Shown: positions 36,602 to 48,129 of the stretch, piece after piece
Layout of the letters: the number at the start of each line of letters is the position of its first letter
Numbering within the stretch: the stretch's first letter is position 1
Assembly (NCBI GenBank): GCA_011390955.1
Contig: JAABRM010000022.1
Location: forward strand, 1 to 64,000
From: Oscillatoriales cyanobacterium
Lineage (GTDB): Bacteria; Cyanobacteriota; Cyanobacteriia; Cyanobacteriales; Laspinemataceae
Reading direction: 5' to 3'
DNA: 64,000 nucleotides
Position numbers and translations under genes: made by a program
The notes under the pieces: model-generated
Databases searched by the model: none
The model's input: only the letters and a program-made list of their open reading frames with translations
What the model was told of the DNA's origin: nothing

Positions 36602-36639
36602 AGCCGCGTTTTGGTGACAAACGAAAGCCCGGATATTTT

Positions 36640-36807
36640 GTCGGGTGGGCAAATGGAAATGACGAGGGGGCCAGCCGACTAAGATTTTAATTTTGCCCAC
36701 CCGACATCTTGGTTTGAGAAATACGGAAGCCCAGATATTTTGTCGGGTGGGCAAATGGAAATGACGAAGGAACCAGCCGAATAACATTGTAATTTTGCCC
36801 ACCCTAC
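36640..36807. repeat. Two 66-bp elements with 14-bp terminal inverted repeats
   Basis: Copies at 36640-36705 and 36742-36807. Ends GTCGGGTGGGCAAA/TTTGCCCACCCGAC in the first; one end of the second is GTAGGGTGGGCAAA when read inward. Interiors begin TGGAAATGACGA. The intervening CATCTTGGTTTGAGAAAT is also repeated, so the pair is a 102-bp tandem duplication. The same 66-bp element appears in the opposite orientation at 49164-49321. Confidence 0.85.
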
Positions 36808-36851
36808 ATCTTGGTTTGAGAAATTAGGCGATCGCTTTCCCTTTTCCCTGT

Positions 36852-37202
36852 TTATGAACTTGACTGAGGTGGACGGTTAACTCTAATTAATTGACCTTTT
36901 AATGTTTCTACCTGAGAAATCGCCTGATTAATTCTCATAGCCAGTCTTTCTCGATCGAAATCTTCCGAGCAAACAATAATCCCTGCATGGTCGGGCTGCA
37001 AGAGATGCAATTTAATAAAATCAGGCCGATTGAATGTCAAAACCGCTCGATTATTGCGAGAGGCAAAAGCCAAGACTTCCTCATCTGAAATCCTTTGGTT
37101 AGCATTTCCGGCTTCCTTGACCGTGAGCACATCGTGACCTAAATTTCTAAGCAATTTCACTACGGGGCTAGAAAAATTTTCATCTGCATATAGACGTGCC
37201 AT
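36852..37202 (-). CDS. DUF5615 PIN-like toxin protein
   Basis: 116 aa from ATG 37202 (a longer frame to 37283 overlaps the antitoxin). MARLYADENFSSPVVKLLRN is the start typical of DUF5615 (Mut7-C/PIN-like) RNases, with acidic Asp7/Glu8, ISDEEVLAFA and LTFNRPDF. The last motif is usually TxDxDF; here the first Asp position is Asn (TFNRPDF), which could weaken catalysis. Gene order antitoxin-toxin with 4 bp spacing matches DUF433-DUF5615 modules. Presumed ribonuclease toxin. Confidence 0.85.
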   Translation of the reverse strand: MARLYADENFSSPVVKLLRNLGHDVLTVKEAGNANQRISDEEVLAFASRNNRAVLTFNRPDFIKLHLLQPDHAGIIVCSEDFDRERLAMRINQAISQVETLKGQLIRVNRPPQSSS

Positions 37203-37206
37203 GATG

Positions 37207-37539
37207 TCAGGCTTCCTCCTGCTGTCGAATGGCTTTCTCAATTTCATCCGGGTTAGCATCAGCATAAGCCCAGGCGTTGGCAAGTTCTTCCTTCGTCAGA
37301 TCGGGATAATCTTCTAGAATATGGGTTTCACTACACCCTAAACGACGAAGATTTACTAGCAACCACACTGGAATTCGCGTCCGGGAAATACAGGCTTGAC
37401 CCCCCATGACGCCAGGAGTTTTTTCTATTCCAGGCCATGGGATTTGGAAAGTTTGGAATAACATTTGGATCGCCCGAGCTTTTTCCACAGCAGTTAAGGC
37501 CAGAAGTTGGGATTCTAATTCTTTGAAAGTCATATTCAT
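37207..37539 (-). CDS. DUF433 antitoxin
   Basis: 110 aa. The DUF433 domain occupies about 40-95: GVMGGQACISRTRIPVWLLV (HTH-like) and ILEDYPDLTKEELANAWAYA. An extra ~38-residue N-terminal segment (FKELESQLLALTAVEKARAI) may be an added dimerisation or DNA-binding region. ATG 37539 or the Met two codons later both possible. Upstream gene of the toxin pair, likely autorepressing. Confidence 0.85.
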   Translation of the reverse strand: MNMTFKELESQLLALTAVEKARAIQMLFQTFQIPWPGIEKTPGVMGGQACISRTRIPVWLLVNLRRLGCSETHILEDYPDLTKEELANAWAYADANPDEIEKAIRQQEEA

Positions 37540-38972: not shown

Positions 38973-39923
38973 TTAGTTTAGTTTTTGATAATCTTCGATT
39001 TTCCATGTGTTATCAACTCGCTGCAAAGAGTACCGAACTTTACGAGTATCAAACCCGCTTTGAGTATTGTCTTGTTCATTATTGACATATAAAGCGAGTT
39101 CTTCTGTTACTATTACCTCAATAGTTGCTCGATCTTCGGTAGCAGCAAACGAGCCAGTTGGCTCAACTTTCCGAAGCCCAAATTTATAAAAAGCATTATT
39201 GCTTTTTAGCCAATCAATTGAGCCACCAGACTTGGTTATATCGTAATAAAGCACCCCTGTTGTTAGATTTGCGGCTAATTGACGATCGAATGGAGGAGCA
39301 AATATTTGTTCCTTTAAAGTAAACCAATTAGAAATCAGGTTAACCGCATCAGCTTCGGTAAATTGGGCGGATGAGGTAGAATTAGAATAATTCTCAGAAT
39401 TAGAATCCCCCGGACTCACTGAATTATTTCCTGCTGTTTGAGTCACTTGAGGCTTGGTAAACAAAATAATTAAAATCATAATCGAACCGCCAATCAAAGT
39501 ACCAAGACTGACCGCATCTCGCCAATCCTTATCCGCCACGGTTTCAGCACCCGATCGCACTTCTATCGCGGTTCTGGCTGGAGGCGTAAATGTTTCCAAC
39601 TTAGTAGCAGCAGACACCTGCGTTCTGAGTTCATCTACATTTTCCAGTAACTCAATAATTGCCGTTTCTTGCAATTCCTCTGCATATTTTAAAGCCGTCC
39701 AACCATCGCGATCGGTAACTCTCGGATCTGCCCCTTTTTCCAGTAACAAATGAACTAAACTAACCTCACCTTTATAGGTGGCAATTATCAGCCCTGTATG
39801 TCCATTGTTATCTTTAGCATTCACATCAGCCCCACGGAATAATAACTCCGCCACTGTGGGGCGATCGCCTTTAATAATAGCATCAATTAAACTTTGATTC
39901 TGGTTCAGAGTATTGATATTCAT
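38973..39923 (-). CDS. Ankyrin-repeat membrane protein with C-terminal IMS/ARC6-like domain
   Basis: 316 aa from ATG 39923. Two to three ankyrin repeats (about 10-97; GADVNAKDNNGHTGLIIATY, GADPRVTDRDGWTALKYAEE), a membrane helix (about 132-155, LGTLIGGSIMILIILF), and a C-terminal domain (about 185-316; EADAVNLISNWFTLKEQIFA to RYSLQRVDNTWKIEDYQ) typical of IMS/DUF4101, the domain of plastid ARC6 and of cyanobacterial proteins. The open frame extends 57 codons upstream through 21-bp repeats (MSFPEFL five times); I take that as non-coding. Last gene of the WXG100/FtsK cluster on this strand, possibly part of it. Confidence 0.85.
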   Translation of the reverse strand: MNINTLNQNQSLIDAIIKGDRPTVAELLFRGADVNAKDNNGHTGLIIATYKGEVSLVHLLLEKGADPRVTDRDGWTALKYAEELQETAIIELLENVDELRTQVSAATKLETFTPPARTAIEVRSGAETVADKDWRDAVSLGTLIGGSIMILIILFTKPQVTQTAGNNSVSPGDSNSENYSNSTSSAQFTEADAVNLISNWFTLKEQIFAPPFDRQLAANLTTGVLYYDITKSGGSIDWLKSNNAFYKFGLRKVEPTGSFAATEDRATIEVIVTEELALYVNNEQDNTQSGFDTRKVRYSLQRVDNTWKIEDYQKLN

Positions 39924-39978
39924 GGTTATGACTCCGGTGATGATTGGTGATGCAAAATTTGTGGATTCCCGCCTTCGC

Positions 39979-40104
39979 GGGAATGACATCAGAAATTCTG
40001 GGAATGACATCAGAAATTCTGGGAATGACATCAGAAATTCTGGGAATGACATCAGAAATTCTGGGAATGACATCAGAAATTCTGGGAATGACATCAGAAA
40101 TTCT
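39979..40104. repeat. Six perfect 21-bp tandem copies
   Basis: GGGAATGACATCAGAAATTCT repeated six times without change, preceded by a single ATTCCCGCCTTCGCGGGAAT hairpin (39964-39983) of the 32498 family. On the minus strand it keeps an open frame into the ankyrin gene. Located between that gene and the 192-aa WXG-like gene. Confidence 0.9.
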
Positions 40105-40123
40105 GATTCACTTATTCGCTGTT

Positions 40124-40702
40124 TTACGCCGAAGGGGGATGTTTCTTTGGTGGCGAACCACTTGCTTGATTTTTATTATCAGCCTTAGCGCTTTTCTCAA
40201 TTTCTCTTTGCCTGCGTTGTGCGTCTGTCTCTTGTTGCTGCGAATAAGCCTCGCTTAACTGGTCTTCCGCATTCATATTCCTCATAATTCCCGGCATCAT
40301 ATCATAACGCTCGCTTAAAGTTGGAGGACGCTGAACGGGTGGGGCGATCGCCATTCCCGCAAGAGACGAAAACGCTTGCACTACGGTAACAGTTTTTTCC
40401 AGTTTTCCCATTAAATCTAAACCCCCCAACTTTGACTTGCGCGACTCAGCAATTCTAATTTGCTCTTGCAGAAACTCAATATAATTGTCGCAATCTTGTT
40501 CCGCATCCTGATAATTAGCCGCCATCTTTTCAAACAACGGCTCAAACTTATCAAACTGTTCATCGCGCCAAGCTATTTTTAAATTAGCCCATTGAGAAAG
40601 TACCCGCGACCACTCTTGCTGAAATGTCTCGCGAAATTGTTGCAAATCACTCAAGAGAACTGCGGCATCTTCTAAAGAGAAAGAAGTTTGTTGTTTAGCC
40701 AT
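40124..40702 (-). CDS. WXG100-like helical protein with C-terminal extension
   Basis: 192 aa. The first ~100 residues are two long helices (SLEDAAVLLSDLQQFRETFQ ... EQDCDNYIEFLQEQIRIAES) with a turn at AWRDEQFDKF, in the size and helix-turn-helix shape of WXG100 proteins, though WRD replaces WxG. The extension (about 110-192) has a hydrophobic part (VVQAFSSLAGMAIAPPVQRP) and a polar Lys/Pro-rich end (KNQASGSPPKKHPPSA), possibly a substrate or targeting tail. Paralogous to the 98-aa gene at 40806. Role as a secreted or structural component is inferred from its place next to the FtsK/EssC-like ATPase. Confidence 0.7.
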   Translation of the reverse strand: MAKQQTSFSLEDAAVLLSDLQQFRETFQQEWSRVLSQWANLKIAWRDEQFDKFEPLFEKMAANYQDAEQDCDNYIEFLQEQIRIAESRKSKLGGLDLMGKLEKTVTVVQAFSSLAGMAIAPPVQRPPTLSERYDMMPGIMRNMNAEDQLSEAYSQQQETDAQRRQREIEKSAKADNKNQASGSPPKKHPPSA

Positions 40703-40740
40703 TTTTATTTAGCCCGGTTCATGGTTTATATAGTTCCTAA

Positions 40741-40770
40741 TGTAGGGGTGATTCGCGAATCACCCCTACA
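40741..40770. repeat. 30-bp perfect palindrome
   Basis: TGTAGGGGTGATTCG plus its exact complement, no loop. An identical copy is at 41141-41170; each follows one of the paralogous WXG-like genes, so it was duplicated together with them. Confidence 0.85.
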
Positions 40771-40805
40771 GTGGTGTGGTTCACCAAAGAGAACAGCGCT
40801 GTAGG

Positions 40806-41102
40806 CTATAAATCCGACAAAGCCCCCAATTTTGACTTGCGCTCATCAGCAATTCTAATTTGTTCTTGCAGAAACTGAATATAGCGATCGCAATCTTGTT
40901 CCGCATCATTATAATTAGCGGCCATCTTTTCAAACAGCGGATCAAACCGATCGAATTGCTCATCGCGCCAAGCTATTTTTAAATTAGCCCATTGAGAAAG
41001 TACCCGCGACCACTCTTGCTGAAGAACTTCTCGAAATTGTTGCAAATCCTTAAGCAGCATTTCCGCATCTTCTGAAGAAAACGAAGTTTGTTGTTTAACC
41101 AT
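40806..41102 (-). CDS. WXG100-like small helical protein
   Basis: 98 aa, nearly identical in layout to residues 1-98 of the 192-aa neighbour (SEDAEMLLKDLQQFREVLQQ, AWRDEQFDRFDPLFEKMAAN, QDCDRYIQFLQEQIRIADER). About 100 aa and two helices is the WXG100 size. The central Trp is kept but Gly is not. It probably dimerises, perhaps with its paralogue or the WXG protein at 41195. Confidence 0.75.
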   Translation of the reverse strand: MVKQQTSFSSEDAEMLLKDLQQFREVLQQEWSRVLSQWANLKIAWRDEQFDRFDPLFEKMAANYNDAEQDCDRYIQFLQEQIRIADERKSKLGALSDL

Positions 41103-41140
41103 TTTTCTTTAGCCCAGCTTATTGTTTATATAGTTCTTGA

Positions 41141-41170
41141 TGTAGGGGTGATTCGCGAATCACCCCTACA
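41141..41170. repeat. 30-bp perfect palindrome, second copy
   Basis: Identical to 40741-40770, with about 35 bp of similar flanking sequence (TTTATATAGTTC). In the spacer between the 98-aa gene and the WXG100 gene. Confidence 0.85.
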
Positions 41171-41194
41171 TACAGGTGCGAAAACATCGCCAGA

Positions 41195-41479
41195 TTATCG
41201 CCGATAATTGCTCTCGAATTCTCTAACGATTTCATCAAAGCGTTCCAACCACTTCAAGGCATCATCCCCCGCTTCTAATGTCACATCAACGGACTGCCGA
41301 GTGCGATCGAAATCCTTAGTAAACTGGTCTTTAGTTTCTCCTTGCCAAGAATCATCACAGGTATCCCAGCTACTTATCACCGTCTTCAATTTATCCTCAG
41401 TAACTTGCTGAAAAGTCGCTAACGTTTGAATAAACCGGGCTAATTCCTCTTCATCTACATCAATATCTCGTTTGCCCAT
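41195..41479 (-). CDS. WXG100-family (ESAT-6-like) protein
   Basis: 94 aa with two helices (DEEELARFIQTLATFQQVTE ... SVDVTLEAGDDALKWLERFD) joined by DDSWQGETKDQF, a true W-x-G motif. This is the hallmark of ESAT-6-like proteins exported by type VII secretion. The usual YxxxD/E signal is not obvious at the end (REFESNYRR), though Tyr is near it. It is 92 bp downstream of the ATPase gene on the same strand, the classic partner arrangement. Confidence 0.82.
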   Translation of the reverse strand: MGKRDIDVDEEELARFIQTLATFQQVTEDKLKTVISSWDTCDDSWQGETKDQFTKDFDRTRQSVDVTLEAGDDALKWLERFDEIVREFESNYRR

Positions 41480-41524
41480 AACCTTACCTCCTATTTATTT
41501 GCCGATACCTTTATCTGTTTCCTT

Positions 41525-41556
41525 AAGCCCCCCTTTCAAAGGGGGGTTGGGGGGAT
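41525..41556. terminator. GC-rich hairpin in the ATPase-WXG100 spacer
   Basis: CCCCCCTTT-C-AAAGGGGGG (41528-41546) followed by TTGGGGGGAT. A common cyanobacterial dispersed repeat. It could attenuate transcription between the ATPase gene and the small genes, or simply be a repeat. Confidence 0.5.
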
Positions 41557-41571
41557 AAAACCCCGTTGAGA

Positions 41572-44500
41572 TTAAAACGAACGGTGCTGAAACTGCTTGC
41601 TATACTCAGCCATTTCTGCAATCGATGGCACCGAATAAGCCTTAAACTTTTCTAAATTATTGCCCGTAGATTTATCGCAGAAATAAGCCATCATTCGCGG
41701 TAAACTTTGGGCGTCAGTTTCTCCCAACAACAACCGCGAATCATCCCCCGGCATATTCAGCCCTACCCGCAAGTCGAAATTAGTTAAAGCCGAACGGTTA
41801 TCTGCGGTTAACTGAGTAAAAGTTTTCAAACTATCCAACCAAAGAATAGAATGAATCCCCAATTCTGGCCCTCTTGCAGCTAAAGCAAGCAACTTTTCCG
41901 CATCTTCCGAAGGTTCTTCATTGCGTCGTCCCACGATCGGGCGCAAATTTTGGGCGCGACTCAAAGAACCGATCGCATATACTAAAAATAAGGAAGGTCC
42001 TAAATTCAGTTCGTCGGGATTTTCATCGCGCTGTTTTTGGCGCCGTTCCAATTCCTCATAGACATTTTGCAACACAGTTTCTCCTCGGAGAATTTTATCC
42101 CCAGGTTTGGGAAAACGTTTGCCGATCGCGGTGGGAAAATACTGGGCAAACAAGCGGCGGAAATTAAGCGACATTGCCGCCCAAGAATTATCTTCGCTGT
42201 CTTGACAAAGGTCAATAATTTGAAACTCTGCTTGTTGCGGTTCATAAGTATGCACCAGACTCAAAAGAATGCCGCTAATTATTCCGAAAATAATTTCTTC
42301 TGACGTCCCCACTAAAAGCATATTACTGCGCGATCGCCGCCGGAAAATCGCCTTAGTATGGTCGCCAATTCGCATTGCTTCTCCCAACCATGCCACCCCC
42401 GGAGTTTCTTCCCCCAACCAGTCAGGTTCTTGAATCACTTGTTTATTCAAATCTCGCGAAGATAACCACCCAGACATTTGGGATAATTGGCGCAATTGGC
42501 GATTGTGACTTAACTTAGTCGGACGACTGCCATTAAATAAAACTAACGGTTCAGAACGTTGATAACCAATATCTCTGGCAGTATTTTGAACTTCTAACAA
42601 AGCCTTAATTCGCTCCGATAAGGACATATCTGCCACTTGACCGATTTCATTATGACCTTTGCGGCCAAAATCTTTATTGTAAATAACCTTCCCCGGCTTT
42701 TCTAACAAATCCACCGCATCAATATTCCCTTCTGCCAACACGGAAGCCGCAGTATTTTTATCCATCTGTTGTGCCATTCTCAACTCAATAAAAGAATAAA
42801 TGCCTCGACTCATATTCGGCACATTAGGAGACTGAGAAGCAATCAGCAAATGGACGCCAAACGCTCGTCCTCGGCGAGTAATATCTTCAAAAATTAAATT
42901 CAGTTCGGCGGTAATCTTGTCCCGGTCTTGGAACATATATTGAAACTCATCAATTACTACCAAAATCCGAGGCATTTTTACGTCAGGGCGTTTTTGCCGA
43001 TAGTCAGTTAAACTGCTCACTCCGACGGACTTAAACTGGCTACCCCGCTGTTCGATTTCCGCTTGCACGTTTTGCAGCACACTTAACCCAAATTCGCGAT
43101 CGCTTTCAATAGAGACAACCCGAGCATGAGGTAAGGCTTTTTCCTCATTTAACTCCTCAGTGTAACTCAGGATTTCTGACCGCTCTGGATCCACATAAAT
43201 TTGAAACTCAACTCCCTCCTTAAAATCCAACAAATACATCTGTAATTCATCCGGGGAATAGCGCAGGGCTAAACTGAGAATAATGGCATGAAGGGTGTAA
43301 CTTTTTCCTGCCCCTGGTTTCCCCGCTAACAATGATTGACTCACCACCAGTGCATCTTCATTTGTCCCTAGCCAAAACTCTAAATTTTCCCTGGCGCCCA
43401 TCACACCAATGGGGGCTCTAACTTCACGACCACTATTGTAATCTACCGACCAGGCAATCTTATCTGGGTTAATAGAACTGGGATAAAACTCGGTAAAAGA
43501 AACCGTCTCCGTTTTCACCTCTTTAAAAGCCTTAGCGATCGCCCCAGTAAGCTGATTAAATTGCTGATTCAGCGGTGGTTCATCTAAATCTACTTGACAT
43601 AAGCAACCATTCGGTAACTGCATCTGAAATAACTGACGTCCTGCTGACTTCATCCCGGACGGTCGTAACACAGTGCAGTAACTTTCAAACAGATTATAGT
43701 TCATATCCCGTTTCGGCTTTTGAGACTCATCAGACTCATCCACATGAACGATCGCATAAACTCCGGCTTTTGAGCCATTCACCAGCAAACTTTTCAAATC
43801 CTCCCAAGAAGCACTCTCAAAATTAGTGGGAAAATCCGCCAAAAATAAATACCGATAGGGTTCTTCCACCGAAGACTTCGCCGCATTAAACGCTTCAATG
43901 GTATCGTAATTTCTGCCCAAATAATTTTGGATCACCTGCTCGATATGCACCGTCAAAGCTCGCAACTGCTCGCGAATATCATCGCTGCGGGTATAGGTTT
44001 TAAGTCCCGAAATAAAATCAGGCAATTCCTTAAATGGAAAATTATTTCCCATACTCACGGGGTCGATAAAAATCCCCTTTAGTTTGCGTACCGGGAACGT
44101 GCAAATAATTCTCAAAGCGATCGACTGAATTGCCGCCACTGCTGCCTGTCTTGACTCAGCATTGTTGCTAAAAATCACCAAATGTCCTGGCATTTTATCC
44201 GCTGTATTTGAAGACATTGCCCGAATTGGCACCAAAGCAGGAATCCCCGGTTCAGTTATGATTGGTTCTGGTAATTTTTCTCTATGATTAACGCTGCTTA
44301 CAGTTCCCACTCTTAAAATTCCGGGGGCTAAACCACCCAGACGCGGCTGATAACCATTACTACCATTACTACCACTATATAATTGATGCCAAATCTCATC
44401 ACTCCAAGGCAGAGATAGCAGAGATTCGGGGCAAATTTTCTCGGCAATTTCCACAGATTCTTTGATTTTGCTTTCCAGACTTTGAATCTCTAAATTAAGT

Positions 44501-44670
44501 CTATTTTCCTCATTGCGCTTATTTTGAGTGAATTCCTGCTGCTCATTCTGGCTATCGCGATTAAATCGCCAACTTTGTTCAGCCACTTCTTGTTCTAACT
44601 TGGCAATTTTTTGGCCAAGCTCTATTCTTTTTTTTTCTAAGTTCTGCAAATTAATTAATACTTTAAGCAT
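41572..44670 (-). CDS. FtsK/SpoIIIE-family ATPase, EssC-like, three modules
   Basis: 1032 aa. N-terminal coiled coil (about 5-72), then three tandem FtsK/SpoIIIE-like modules: the first (about 110-400) and third (about 745-1032) have lost the P-loop (third: LLVGTSEEIIFGIISG at about 785-800), while the second (about 410-690) is intact, with Walker A GKPGAGKS (450-457), Walker B VVIDEF (571-576) and SQSPN sensor (613-617). Three modules with degenerate copies is the EssC/EccC plan of type VII secretion. Unlike EssC there are no FHA domains and no N-terminal membrane helices, so it must be recruited to the membrane by a partner. WXG100 genes follow and a membrane kinase precedes it. Confidence 0.85.
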   Translation of the reverse strand: MLKVLINLQNLEKKRIELGQKIAKLEQEVAEQSWRFNRDSQNEQQEFTQNKRNEENRLNLEIQSLESKIKESVEIAEKICPESLLSLPWSDEIWHQLYSGSNGSNGYQPRLGGLAPGILRVGTVSSVNHREKLPEPIITEPGIPALVPIRAMSSNTADKMPGHLVIFSNNAESRQAAVAAIQSIALRIICTFPVRKLKGIFIDPVSMGNNFPFKELPDFISGLKTYTRSDDIREQLRALTVHIEQVIQNYLGRNYDTIEAFNAAKSSVEEPYRYLFLADFPTNFESASWEDLKSLLVNGSKAGVYAIVHVDESDESQKPKRDMNYNLFESYCTVLRPSGMKSAGRQLFQMQLPNGCLCQVDLDEPPLNQQFNQLTGAIAKAFKEVKTETVSFTEFYPSSINPDKIAWSVDYNSGREVRAPIGVMGARENLEFWLGTNEDALVVSQSLLAGKPGAGKSYTLHAIILSLALRYSPDELQMYLLDFKEGVEFQIYVDPERSEILSYTEELNEEKALPHARVVSIESDREFGLSVLQNVQAEIEQRGSQFKSVGVSSLTDYRQKRPDVKMPRILVVIDEFQYMFQDRDKITAELNLIFEDITRRGRAFGVHLLIASQSPNVPNMSRGIYSFIELRMAQQMDKNTAASVLAEGNIDAVDLLEKPGKVIYNKDFGRKGHNEIGQVADMSLSERIKALLEVQNTARDIGYQRSEPLVLFNGSRPTKLSHNRQLRQLSQMSGWLSSRDLNKQVIQEPDWLGEETPGVAWLGEAMRIGDHTKAIFRRRSRSNMLLVGTSEEIIFGIISGILLSLVHTYEPQQAEFQIIDLCQDSEDNSWAAMSLNFRRLFAQYFPTAIGKRFPKPGDKILRGETVLQNVYEELERRQKQRDENPDELNLGPSLFLVYAIGSLSRAQNLRPIVGRRNEEPSEDAEKLLALAARGPELGIHSILWLDSLKTFTQLTADNRSALTNFDLRVGLNMPGDDSRLLLGETDAQSLPRMMAYFCDKSTGNNLEKFKAYSVPSIAEMAEYSKQFQHRSF

Positions 44671-44741
44671 GGTTAACTTCCCCTACTTATTTTTTTGATA
44701 TTTGATAATTTTCGATTTTCTATAATCATTACCAATTATCG

Positions 44742-45344
44742 CTATTCTGACTCTGGATCTACAGCACTAATAACTCCAAAAACTACAACCACCGCCACTA
44801 ATGTAGCTATTGGATTATGGCTAATTATCGCTGTAATTACTCCCGCAATAACCGTCAGCAATACCTGAATTAACTTAGCATTTTTCAGATACTTCCTCAG
44901 AGCCTCTATTTTATTCTCCGTAATCGTTAACTCGGCTTTCATTACCCTTAAATTATCGGCGTTTTTTTCAATTCCTCCGCGAGCAAATTCGGGCATTTGC
45001 CGATTGACTACTTGGGTTAAAGATTTTTGAGCCTGATGTTTTTTTTGCGAATCAGTCACCAGTTTCTCTAGAGTAAAGTAATAGCGCTCTAGTGCCAATT
45101 TATCTGTTTCTATTGTCAATGATTTATCAATTTTTATGTTCAACCCATATTTCGCTAAATTTTGCTGAATTATTTCGGCATCTTTTCGGTCAATATTGTT
45201 GAGGATGAGAGAATTAGCTGGGGAATTTAAAAGATTTCTAGCCTCTCTTAGGTTCAGTCCCAAAATGCGGGCTAGAGTCTTAGCGACTAAGATTTCCTTG
45301 TCTTCAGAGAATTCCGTCAAGGTTACATAACATTCATCAGCCAT
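44742..45344 (-). CDS. Membrane protein with ribosomal L7/L12 C-terminal-like domain
   Basis: 200 aa. Residues about 1-72 (VTLTEFSEDKEILVAKTLAR, LNLREARNLLNSPANSLILN, IIQQNLAKYGLNIKI) have the alternating helix-strand pattern and alpha-beta layout of the L7/L12 C-terminal/ClpS-like fold. A helical middle (about 80-155) precedes two closely spaced hydrophobic segments (about 158-176 and 178-193). Upstream of the ATPase gene by 71 bp, so probably co-transcribed. It could be the membrane recruiter that the ATPase lacks; that is inference. Confidence 0.7.
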   Translation of the reverse strand: MADECYVTLTEFSEDKEILVAKTLARILGLNLREARNLLNSPANSLILNNIDRKDAEIIQQNLAKYGLNIKIDKSLTIETDKLALERYYFTLEKLVTDSQKKHQAQKSLTQVVNRQMPEFARGGIEKNADNLRVMKAELTITENKIEALRKYLKNAKLIQVLLTVIAGVITAIISHNPIATLVAVVVVFGVISAVDPESE

Positions 45345-45654
45345 TGTGCCTACCTAGTTGACTTTTCCTAGAGTTCTTGTTATGCTTACGTTTAAAAGTT
45401 TTAAGCTACTTTTGCGAATTAATTATCAAAGAATAATTTTATTGTTATTTTAAAATAAATCGATCGTCTTGCCAACTGTCAGCGAAAAAATGTAATAAAT
45501 TGTTACAATTAAAACTCAGAAACCGGGTTTCTTTTGGTTTAAGAAATAGCAGGATTCCCCCCCGCGAAAGCGGATCCCTACCGGGATCCGCTTTGCGCGA
45601 TCGCCTCCCAGGAATTATAAACCCGGTTTCTTGTTTCCCAAAATAAACTTTTCA
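45345..45654. repeat. Spacer with two repeat-derived hairpins
   Basis: AAAGCGGATCCC (45567-45578) and GGGATCCGCTTT (45583-45594) form a 12-bp stem with a 4-nt loop. AAACCGGGTTTCT (45522-45534) and AAACCCGGTTTCT (about 45619-45631) are the ends of a copy of the ~70-bp element. No gene. The kinase-L7/L12-like gap could therefore contain a terminator plus a new promoter. Confidence 0.6.
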
Positions 45655-46842
45655 TTAAAGCATACTCAAAAGGGCGATCGCGCCGAGCCAAATTGCCATA
45701 GATACGGGAATCCCAAACAGAATACCGGCGATCGTCCAGCCCCGTTGGTGTGCTTTAAATTGTTCAATACTGCGCCATTTGCGACTTTTCCAAGCCCATT
45801 CATTGCCCTTATATCCGAGGATTGGCCCCATAAACATTCCGATATATGGAGCCCAGGATAAAAGTCCAATCCAGGTTTGATTGGTCAATGGCCAAAATTG
45901 GGGAAACAAAAAAGCACCCCAATTCCAACCTTTAATTTCATCGGGCACTGGAACCGAGGAATCAAATAAACCTCCTTCTCCCGAATTATTGACAAAATTA
46001 CTGGCAACTTTCCCGGTATTTTCTTTATTTAAAATAATGCCAGATTCCAGCATATTTTTCGCTTCCCGCGCCGAGGTGGGGCGTTTTTCTACGGATGGTT
46101 CTGTCAGCATTTCTAGCCACTGCAAAAAGCTGGGACTAGCATTAACTAAATGACGAAATTGAATATGGGCATCATATTGGGGTAAATCTGCGGGTGAAGT
46201 GCCACTGAGTAAATTAATTAAAGTGGCAGCGAGGGCATAAAGGTCAGAAGCGGGGACAGTTCTGCCGCCATATTGTTCCATTGGGGCATAACCGAATGTG
46301 CCCACGACGGTGAAAGTCGATCCGATCGCTGGGGATGAATCTTGCACCGAACCAAAATCAATTAAATAAAGGCAACCTTTGTTATCTAAAATTAAGTTAC
46401 TGGGTTTAATATCCCGGTGTAAAACTTGGGGATTCAGTTCGTGCAGATAAATCAGGATATTTAATGCTTGTTTAGCGAGTTCCCGCACTTCTGATTCAGT
46501 AAATCGTTTCTCTTCAATTTGTAACTGTTTGAGAGATTTGCCCGGAATATATTGCTGGACTAAGCCAAACCAAAGGGTTTGGTCATCGAGATGAAAATAA
46601 TCATAATATTTGGGAATGCGCGGATAATCTAGTTGTTTTAATATGTTGGCTTCTCGTTCAAATAGTTTCAAGTGTTCCCACTGGACTAGGCCACCAAATG
46701 CTAAGAATTTTATCACCACTAATTGTCGTTCAATTTCCGTGGCTTGCAAATCTTTTGCCAGCCAAGTTTGCCGGACGGGATTATCACTTAACTGCCGTTG
46801 GAGTTGATAACGGTCTTGGATGATTTGAGCGATCGCGAGCAT
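45655..46842 (-). CDS. Ser/Thr protein kinase with C-terminal membrane domain
   Basis: 395 aa. Kinase domain about 1-270 with Lys45 (VVIKFLAFG), HRDIKPSN (142-149), DFG (162-164), GTFGYAPMEQ and SDLYALAATL. The glycine-rich loop is replaced by LSDNPVRQTW (18-27), so ATP binding may be atypical. The C-terminal region (about 305-395: WNWGAFLFPQFWPLTNQTWI and further hydrophobic stretches) is a small multi-span membrane module. First gene of the WXG100/FtsK cluster; EssB of Firmicutes type VII systems is a membrane pseudokinase, a suggestive but unproven parallel. Confidence 0.88.
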   Translation of the reverse strand: MLAIAQIIQDRYQLQRQLSDNPVRQTWLAKDLQATEIERQLVVIKFLAFGGLVQWEHLKLFEREANILKQLDYPRIPKYYDYFHLDDQTLWFGLVQQYIPGKSLKQLQIEEKRFTESEVRELAKQALNILIYLHELNPQVLHRDIKPSNLILDNKGCLYLIDFGSVQDSSPAIGSTFTVVGTFGYAPMEQYGGRTVPASDLYALAATLINLLSGTSPADLPQYDAHIQFRHLVNASPSFLQWLEMLTEPSVEKRPTSAREAKNMLESGIILNKENTGKVASNFVNNSGEGGLFDSSVPVPDEIKGWNWGAFLFPQFWPLTNQTWIGLLSWAPYIGMFMGPILGYKGNEWAWKSRKWRSIEQFKAHQRGWTIAGILFGIPVSMAIWLGAIALLSML

Positions 46843-47844: not shown

Positions 47845-47987
47845 TAATTTAAGTTAAAAAAACATCAGCAAAAAATTTGAGCCAAAAAACGGGTGTATTT
47901 TTGAGAAAACATCAGCCCGGAGACTCCTGGCATCCGGGTCAGGCATTCAAAGCGATAGCCTTTTAACCTTAGCATCCGAAGACTCAG

Positions 47988-48044
47988 CAATGGGACTAAG
48001 CAATGGGACTAAGCAATGGGACTAAGCAATGGGACTAAGCAATG
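47988..48044. repeat. 13-bp tandem repeat GCAATGGGACTAA
   Basis: Four copies in a row, then a partial. The rest of 47845-48129 shows a SELF-complementary AGCGATTCC-type repeat near 48055-48090 and no gene. Confidence 0.75.
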
Positions 48045-48129
48045 GGCGCAAGCAGGCGATTCCGCGAGAGCGGACGCCAAAGCGAATCGCTATGAGATGA
48101 TAATAAGTAAGATTATCTAAAAGAGTCTC

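What the first reader, a model, noticed from the sequence alone, without database searches (positions are those of the whole stretch)
40124..46842. Type-VII-secretion-like cluster in a cyanobacterium: membrane kinase, L7/L12-like membrane protein, EssC-like ATPase, WXG100 proteins
All genes lie on one strand in order kinase, L7/L12-CTD-like, three-module FtsK/SpoIIIE ATPase, true WXG100 (W-Q-G at its turn), and two WXG100-like paralogues, then the ankyrin/IMS membrane protein. Established: WXG100 proteins next to a multi-domain FtsK/SpoIIIE ATPase define type VII systems in Actinobacteria and Firmicutes, and EssB is a membrane pseudokinase. Here a kinase-like membrane protein sits at the head, but EsaA/EssA/EccB-E are absent, and the ATPase lacks N-terminal membrane helices. 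This could be a minimal or novel WXG100 export or conflict system.
Basis: partly seen in the sequence, partly recalled or inferred. Interest (0 to 1): 0.88.

Follow-up and report, generated by a model that had tools for sequence, protein, structure and literature searches.

The report
Cyanobacterial ESX-like WXG100 export cassette
A cyanobacterium carries a small gene cassette built like the motor and cargo of the type VII protein secretion machines of Gram-positive bacteria; the family was noted in print in 2012, but the membrane anchor, the paired cargo and the effector-like relatives seen here make its function testable.

Summary
All genes lie on the minus strand at the stated places: kinase, L7/L12-CTD membrane protein, 1032-aa EccC/EssC-like ATPase, a true WXG100 protein, and two paralogues with W-x-D at the turn. 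ATPase and WXG-like genes form a conserved unit: in 386 sampled cyanobacterial genomes the 9 with this ATPase are the 9 with clear WXG-like genes; across phyla 64 of 89 ATPase loci have WXG-like ORFs, all on the ATPase strand.

It is not a new kind. Zhang et al. 2012 (PMC3482391, Table 1 footnote) name cyanobacteria among lineages with solo WXG domains and a three-module YueA-like ATPase whose middle module alone is active, as "mobile versions of T7SS"; the CoCoNuT paper (PMC11090510) describes an embedded form. Not found in eight library searches: the missing membrane helices sit in the upstream gene (fused to the ATPase in Calothrix and Leptolyngbya, in one chain in planctomycetes); WxG plus WxD pairs as a family trait; effector-like third genes (ADP-ribosyltransferase, GNAT) in cyanobacterial relatives; kinases fused to the ATPase in planctomycetes. 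Best reading: a split, membrane-anchored ESX-like translocase for WXG-domain proteins. Export is inferred, not shown.

The parts
45655..46842 (-). Ser/Thr protein kinase with intact VVIK/HRD/DFG motifs and a hydrophobic C-terminal part (one predicted helix, residues 374-392); probable regulator, possibly its own transcription unit
   Evidence: Pfam Pkinase 102.6 bits; motifs and helix; 310 bp gap; kinase fused to the same ATPase in planctomycetes L053, L056, L075
44742..45344 (-). Membrane anchor subunit: L7/L12 CTD-like domain (7-72), coiled coil, C-terminal hydrophobic hairpin (156-174, 177-195)
   Evidence: Pfam Ribosomal_L12 32.5 bits; hydropathy; coiled-coil/TM similarity to the L032 upstream protein E 5e-8; related N-terminal parts fused to the ATPase in L035, L072, L004
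41572..44670 (-). EccC/EssC-like FtsK-fold ATPase, N-terminal coiled coil plus three modules, only the middle one with Walker A (450-457) and B (570-575)
   Evidence: pLDDT 84.8; T. curvata EccC Z 30.7, 551 aligned
41195..41479 (-). WXG100 protein (W-Q-G at the turn)
   Evidence: Pfam WXG100 32.0 bits over cut-off 27.3; the only PF06013 match in the genome at E 0.001
40806..41102 (-). WXG100-like protein with W-R-D at the turn; predicted helical hairpin, probable partner of the 94-aa WXG100 protein
40124..40702 (-). WXG100-like domain (82% identical to the 98-aa protein) plus a low-complexity tail of about 100 aa; part of a 400-bp tandem duplication; in the slot where relatives carry effector-like genes
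   Evidence: tandem repeat 40419-41170; 254 of 304 aligned DNA positions identical; relatives
38973..40094 (-). Ankyrin repeats, one hydrophobic helix, ARC6-like IMS domain; likely real start 39923; accessory
   Evidence: Pfam IMS 81.3 bits, Ank_2 49.9; helix 194-212; homologues beside the cassette in L007, L032-L034, L036
37662..38813 (-). Beta-lactamase2-family serine hydrolase with a hydrophobic N-terminus; co-located in some relatives but not specific to the cassette
   Evidence: Pfam 63.0 bits; beside the cassette in L032-L034, L036, L124; homologues at E 1e-20 in 176 of 386 genomes

Best explanation
A compact ESX/type-VII-like translocase cassette with a split motor. The upstream coiled-coil/TM-hairpin protein holds the soluble three-module ATPase at the cytoplasmic membrane. 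ATP turnover is confined to the middle module. The WXG100 (WxG) protein and its WxD partner form a hairpin pair that engages the motor, is pumped through it, and guides larger substrates. These substrates are proteins whose head is a WXG-like hairpin or the coiled-coil domain found beside it in relatives, and whose tail varies (ADP-ribosyltransferase, GNAT, possibly nuclease). In the window the third gene (192 aa) is in that slot but bears only a low-complexity tail. The kinase and the IMS/Ank membrane protein are probably regulators or envelope-facing accessories. Shown by computation: gene order, predicted folds, one intact ATP site, anchor by fusion in relatives, co-occurrence. Inferred: assembly at the membrane, pairing, transport and its direction, use in conflict. 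How anything would cross the outer membrane is unknown.
For: ATPase: EccC and EssC models far above FtsK (101.5 and 97.5 v 21.1 bits); profile search best hit T. curvata EccC 196 bits, FtsK 77; Foldseek best hits EccC then EssC. Anchor: fused in L035 (L7/L12 + coiled coil + hairpin + ATPase), L072 and L004; by a hydropathy rule an upstream TM gene in 14 of 20 cyanobacterial loci, fused in 3, not found in 3; hairpin inside the ATPase chain in 18 of 21 loci that I grouped as planctomycete; same order on a Deinococcus plasmid. WXG: 64 of 89 loci, 127 ORFs, all on the ATPase strand, 63 of the 64 loci within 4 kb; 18 of 20 cyanobacterial loci have two or more, and the other two contigs end 105 and 0 bp past the ATPase. 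Substrate-like fusions over Pfam cut-off: L032 coiled coil + ART (37.6 bits), L038 WXG-like + GNAT (33.5), L125 coiled-coil protein + GNAT (29.4). Analogy: LXG toxins need cognate WXG-like partners (PMC5555719, passages seen).
Against: No export data. No YukD, EssB/YukC or EsaA match in the genome. The YxxxD/E pattern is absent from the window's WXG100 protein and lies mid-helix (residue 64) in the two WxD proteins; the published HxxxD/ExxhxxxH pattern was not found in the second half of the three window sequences tested and in only 4 of the 25 sequences (pattern from PMC3935865; the tail of the 192-aa protein was not tested). No TM segment found by my rule in or beside the ATPase in 22 of 82 loci, many of them actinobacterial, so anchoring is not universal; background TM frequency was not measured. 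Hydropathy windows, not a trained TM predictor, were used; at a lower threshold they also flag 176-194 and 785-803 of the ATPase, which are helices inside modules in the model. FtsK ties with EccC in the structural second look. No recognisable toxin domain in the window itself. The host has an outer membrane (established for cyanobacteria) and no outer-membrane part was identified.
Confidence: 0.55

Rival explanations
1. Intracellular conflict or defence device: the ATPase and hairpin proteins assemble at or near the inner membrane and, on a kinase or phage signal, load or release effectors inside the same cell; nothing is exported.
For: Family members are embedded in CoCoNuT/TerY-P defence operons (PMC11090510, section read); TerD fused to the ATPase in L081 (102.4 bits); HEPN/MNT-like toxin-antitoxin genes (by eye) sit inside four cyanobacterial cassettes, two of them probably one locus; no TM found near the ATPase in 22 of 82 loci; no canonical secretion signal found.
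Against: A TM anchor is in trans or fused in 17 of 20 cyanobacterial loci by rule; by sequence and Foldseek the nearest solved proteins are type VII secretion ATPases; the anchored planctomycete chains resemble EccC/EssC in layout.
Confidence: 0.28
2. Kinase-regulated envelope module: the IMS/Ank protein, serine hydrolase and kinase form an envelope sensor, and the ATPase/WXG genes are its export arm for cell-wall or septum work, not for conflict.
For: A kinase-IMS fusion (127.2 and 84.5 bits) and a serine hydrolase (48.5) lie in the cassette operon in L124; IMS and serine hydrolase are also beside it in L032-L034 and L036.
Against: A kinase-IMS gene next to the hydrolase occurs without the ATPase in G103, and an IMS-hydrolase pair lies on another contig from the ATPase in G207 (2 of the 6 hydrolase regions examined); hydrolase homologues occur in 176 of 386 genomes; other cyanobacterial cassettes lack these genes in the stretches held.
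Confidence: 0.1
3. A DNA translocase of the FtsK/HerA kind with unrelated small helical neighbours.
Against: FtsK covers far less of the chain (275 v 551 aligned residues) and scores far lower by sequence; WXG-like partners are conserved over phyla.
Confidence: 0.04

Closest known systems
'Mobile versions of T7SS': solo WXG plus YueA-like ATPase with only the middle module active (Zhang et al. 2012, PMC3482391, Table 1 footnote 6)
   Same: Three modules with one active in the middle, WXG proteins without the rest of a T7SS; cyanobacteria are named
   Different: The footnote, as seen, gives no loci, anchor, WxD partner or effectors; [quoted passage not shown]
   Same: EssC-like ATPase with N-terminal coiled coil and one active module; two WXG100 proteins, one with WxG and one without; a coiled-coil gene with a nuclease-like domain
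   Different: No CoCoNuT or vWA domain among the ten window proteins scanned; that paper stresses the lack of TM helices, here supplied by a second gene
T7SSb and T7SSc-j of Gram-positives (PMC11217815)
   Same: FtsK-family ATPase plus WXG100; kinases often encoded with it, TscD with a conserved active site
   Different: Membrane-bound ATPase, a YukD-like subunit in most, other membrane parts; described there for Bacillota and Actinomycetota
LXG toxins with WXG-like partner proteins (PMC5555719)
   Same: Helical N-domain plus variable C-terminal enzyme, with small WXG-like partners encoded beside it
   Different: LXG motif not tested; heads here are WXG-like or a separate coiled-coil family

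Membership tests
Mobile T7SS-like cassettes (Zhang 2012 footnote) | ATPase with three FtsK/HerA modules, only the middle one active | tested here: met
   One P-loop and one Walker B, both in the middle module; three-module model
Mobile T7SS-like cassettes (Zhang 2012 footnote) | WXG protein encoded with the ATPase | tested here: met
   Pfam 32.0 bits v 27.3; 9 of 9 ATPase-bearing genomes of 386
Mobile T7SS-like cassettes (Zhang 2012 footnote) | Mobility | tested here: inconclusive
   Present in 9 of 386 cyanobacterial genomes; relatives at E 1e-20 in 5 of 72,556 plasmid and 1 of 50,697 phage records; but the 19 cyanobacterial ATPases in the tree form one clade (0.99)
Type VII secretion system (T7SSa/b) | EccC/EssC-type ATPase | tested here: met
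   but all NCBIfam scores are below the curated cut-offs for EccC/EssC proper
Type VII secretion system (T7SSa/b) | ATPase anchored by N-terminal TM helices | tested here: inconclusive
   None in the window ATPase; hairpin in the upstream protein, fused in relatives
Type VII secretion system (T7SSa/b) | YukD/EsaB ubiquitin-like protein | tested here: not met
   0 matches in the genome (95.1% complete); control rings in B. subtilis
Type VII secretion system (T7SSa/b) | EssB/YukC pseudokinase | tested here: not met
   0 matches, control rings in B. subtilis; the kinase here keeps its catalytic motifs
Type VII secretion system (T7SSa/b) | EsaA | tested here: not met
   0 matches; control rings in 4 genomes, over the cut-off in 1
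Type VII secretion system (T7SSa/b) | EccB | tested here: inconclusive
   0 matches but no control genome rang
Type VII secretion system (T7SSa/b) | C-terminal signal YxxxD/E or HxxxD/ExxhxxxH on WXG100 proteins | tested here: not met
   Pattern search of 25 sequences: in the window YxxxD/E only at residue 64 of the two WxD proteins, mid-helix; HxxxD/ExxhxxxH in none of the three window sequences, in 4 of 25 overall; the tail of the 192-aa protein was not tested
Type VII secretion system (T7SSa/b) | ATPase-dependent export of WXG100 proteins | not testable with these tools
   Needs an export assay
WXG100 superfamily | About 100 aa, two-helix hairpin with WXG at the turn | tested here: met
   94-aa protein: Pfam over cut-off and W-Q-G; its own structure was not predicted. 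The 98- and 192-aa proteins have W-R-D at the turn and do not reach the Pfam cut-off; a hairpin was predicted for the 98-aa protein
CoCoNuT-embedded EssC module | Flanking TerY-like vWA and CnuB/CnuC genes | tested here: not met
   None among the ten proteins of 37.2-47.3 kb scanned with Pfam; genes further out were not scanned

The most novel reading that the evidence does not exclude
A minimal, split type-VII-like machine working in diderm bacteria: the motor is recruited by a separate membrane subunit, and it delivers WXG-headed polymorphic effectors (ADP-ribosyltransferase, acetyltransferase, nuclease-like) under Ser/Thr-kinase control, an export and antagonism system of cyanobacteria, planctomycetes and Chloroflexi for which I found no characterised member.
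Probability: 0.3. Interest if true: 0.8.

Novelty: new variant of a known kind. Interest (0 to 1): 0.5.

Why it matters
T7SS are textbook Gram-positive machines. A compact ATPase/WXG pair that recurs in phyla with two membranes asks how little a type VII translocase needs, and where its cargo goes when an outer membrane lies beyond. The split anchor and its natural fusions give a direct test of the motor's topology. The 2024 account of the embedded form thought a different mechanism likely because TM domains are lacking; that argument weakens if the anchor is a second gene. A hairpin or coiled-coil head with changing enzymatic tails offers a handle on effector export or conflict in cyanobacteria.

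Tried and rejected
Serine hydrolase and IMS gene as core parts: rejected as specific. Hydrolase homologues are in 176 of 386 genomes, and IMS/hydrolase neighbours exist apart from the ATPase in 2 of 6 regions examined.

Kinase as an EssB equivalent: rejected, catalytic motifs intact. As a core part: left open. A search with the window kinase over the called ORFs hits none of the other 19 cyanobacterial loci (some have only about 1.5 kb of flank); of six re-fetched, longer loci only L124 (G054) shows one; planctomycetes have it fused.

Viral relatives of the WXG protein: none confirmed. YukD, EssB, EsaA elsewhere in the genome: none; the EccB search is void. Pfam for L066, L088, L081 and L080 coiled-coil-headed proteins: no match over cut-off. 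L065's matches CorA over cut-off (29.9 v 27), over its coiled coil, which I take as spurious. Zincin-like, ParB-like and nuclease-like readings of such tails are mine by eye or below cut-off (L125 342 aa: 15.0 v 27 bits; L044: 13.4 v 26.3).

Module register: the second and third modules align to EccC from residue 415 on (Z 30.7) but also to EssC ATPases 2-3 (Z 26.5), and the first to the EccC5 DUF domain (Z 15.6). I lean to DUF-D1-D2 but rest nothing on it.

Literature: eight searches. I found no paper on a cyanobacterial WXG100 system beyond the 2012 footnote; subscription papers are mostly not held. Anantharaman 2012 is known to me only through its citation in PMC11090510. Sutcliffe 2011 is recalled, and seen only as a citation in PMC3935865. 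What I saw: PMC11217815 abstract and passages; PMC3482391, PMC5555719, PMC3935865, PMC1779556, PMC12607788, PMC12599244 and PMC4631099 passages; PMC11090510 passages and section 10 whole.

Dropped rows: 7 of 89 loci left out of the ATPase alignment (under 800 aa or under 150 bits), and 2 of 82 from the tree. L005 and L038 look like the same locus, and L096, L098 and L108 are close relatives, so counts are of loci, not independent events. Only 80 of 95 relatives were kept by the tool. Phyla were assigned by me from record titles; L060's title names none.
Full report
What is there. The finding's genes are all present: kinase 45655-46842, L7/L12-CTD membrane protein 44742-45344, ATPase 41572-44670, WXG100 protein 41195-41479, paralogues 40806-41102 and 40124-40702, then Ank/IMS 38973-40094. 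The gap between kinase and anchor gene is 310 bp; the others are 29-103 bp. Promoter-like and terminator-like matches fall in the 310-bp gap, but such matches are not clearly above background for the region (29 v 23.5 +/- 4.5, and 17 v 11.1 +/- 4.6), so the transcription units are not settled. The two WxD paralogues are part of a 400-bp tandem duplication and are 82% identical in protein over the shared part.

The motor. NCBIfam gives EccCa 101.5 bits, EssC 97.5 and FtsK 21.1, all below the curated cut-offs for the named equivalogs. A profile of 26 relatives finds T. curvata EccC first (196 bits) and FtsK later (77). The AlphaFold model (pLDDT 84.8, pTM 0.75) has a long N-terminal helix and three modules. 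Foldseek ranks EccC and EssC first, though with low TM-scores over the whole chain (0.36 for EccC), as expected if modules are set at different angles. The structural second look gives Z 30.7 over 551 residues to EccC; FtsK ties within one Z unit over 275 residues. So fold alone does not decide; sequence and neighbours do. Only the middle module has Walker A and B, and the lysine and the acidic pair are invariant in the 82 homologues aligned.

The anchor. The ATPase chain has no N-terminal membrane segment. The gene before it encodes a C-terminal hydrophobic hairpin after a coiled coil. In Calothrix NIES-4105 (L035) one 1362-aa chain carries an L7/L12 CTD (27.3 bits), a coiled coil, the hairpin and the ATPase. 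Leptolyngbya L072 and L004 are fused too, and 18 of the 21 loci that I grouped as planctomycete have a hydrophobic segment or hairpin about 230-275 residues before module 1. The head of the anchor varies: L7/L12 CTD in the window and L035, TPR-like in L032 and L036 by eye, little in L040. By my hydropathy rule 24 of 82 loci are fused, 26 have a TM gene upstream, 10 only downstream, and 22 have none. Many actinobacterial members are in the last group, so the anchor belongs to some branches and not to the whole family. I did not measure how often random neighbours have TM segments.

The hairpin proteins. Iterated profile search finds WXG-like ORFs in 64 of 89 ATPase loci, 127 ORFs in all, every one on the ATPase strand although both strands were searched. 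The turn reads W-x-D in 103, W-x-G in 20, F-x-G in 2 and gaps in 2 of 127. Of the 25 loci without a hit, several end close to the ATPase; others are a Firmicutes branch with different small genes, and distant actinobacterial members. In cyanobacteria 18 of 20 loci have at least two, and the other two contigs end at the ATPase. In 386 genomes of the phylum, 37 match the ATPase at E <= 1e-10, but 28 of these match only over the FtsK-like stretch at about 41-51 bits; 9 are true relatives of 260 bits or more. The hairpin profile hits those 9, plus 2 weak partial matches. The profile was built partly from cyanobacterial loci, so the absences carry the weight.

Effector-like genes. Downstream of the hairpin pair, relatives carry genes with one of two heads and a changing tail. 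In L032-L034 a 422-aa gene has the coiled-coil head and an ADP-ribosyltransferase (PF01129 37.6 bits, PF03496 28.5, tested on L032 only), followed by a 60-aa ORF and a small WXG-like gene. In L038 a WXG-like head carries a GNAT domain (33.5 bits). L125 has a coiled-coil protein with GNAT (29.4 bits) and a WXG-like head with a weak, sub-threshold restriction-nuclease match. Iterated search with the coiled-coil head from L066 finds 54 ORFs across phyla, although such helical profiles drift: searches from L032 (121 ORFs) and L051 (90) also drew in WXG-like ORFs. [quoted passage not shown] the cyanobacterial fusions extend this if they are toxins, which is not shown. The window's own third gene has only a low-complexity tail.

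Kinase and envelope genes. The kinase has VVIK, HRD and DFG. In planctomycetes the same ATPase has a Pkinase domain at its N-terminus in the three chains tested (L053, L056, L075: 142-151 bits); L055 and L062 look similar by a weaker search. In G054 a kinase-IMS fusion and the serine hydrolase lie in the operon. But the hydrolase is common (176 of 386), and a kinase-IMS/hydrolase pair (G103) and an IMS/hydrolase pair (G207) occur apart from the ATPase, in 2 of 6 regions examined. I read them as a separate module that has joined the cassette in some lineages.

History. The 19 cyanobacterial ATPases in the tree form one clade (support 0.99) beside a clade of seven Chloroflexi (joint support 1.00), patchily present. 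Relatives occur on a few plasmids (5 of 72,556 records); the Deinococcus one is preceded by three transposase genes and has the order TM gene, ATPase, two WXG-like genes, coiled-coil gene, 144-aa gene.

Comparison with the known. The system fits the 'mobile versions of T7SS' of Zhang et al. 2012, where cyanobacteria are named, and the EssC-like module of CoCoNuT operons. It fails membership of T7SSa/b on YukD, EssB, EsaA and the C-terminal signal, so I do not file it there; it may still work like one. New here, as far as eight searches of the held library go: the anchor in trans with natural fusions, the WxG/WxD pair as a family trait (the CoCoNuT paper notes one WXG100 protein without WxG), effector-like fusions in cyanobacterial cassettes, and the kinase fusion. 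Export itself remains an inference.

Noticed in passing
window 36852-37539, minus strand: A DUF433 gene (77.2 bits) next to a 143-aa ORF that looks like a DUF5615/PIN-type toxin (by eye, recalled), a probable toxin-antitoxin pair just beyond the serine hydrolase.
   Followed up: no
window 39979-40105: Six perfect copies of a 21-bp repeat inside the called start of the Ank/IMS gene, giving a spurious repeated N-terminus; real start probably 39923.
   Followed up: partly
window 36621-36824 and 47981-48046: A 102-bp repeat in two copies (91% matches) and a 13-bp repeat in five copies near the cluster.
   Followed up: no
L004, L005, L006, L038: An MNT-like nucleotidyltransferase and a HEPN-like gene (toxin-antitoxin type, by eye) sit between the ATPase and the WXG gene in these four loci (two of them probably the same locus); L003 has the first only.
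   Followed up: no
L072:9398-12196: The Leptolyngbya ATPase chain contains an S1 RNA-binding domain match (42.6 bits, residues 544-612) before the active module.
   Followed up: no
L081:8423-12424 and L094: Actinobacterial homologues carry an N-terminal TerD domain fused to the ATPase (102.4 bits in L081; L094 by eye).
   Followed up: partly
L076, L083, L084, L086, L090, L097, L106: A Firmicutes branch with a long conserved operon (radical-SAM-like, FHA-like and TM-hairpin genes by eye) around the same ATPase, in which my profile found no WXG-like gene.
   Followed up: no
window 44742-45344 and L035: A ribosomal L7/L12 CTD-like domain heads the anchor protein; why that fold is there is unexplained.
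   Followed up: no
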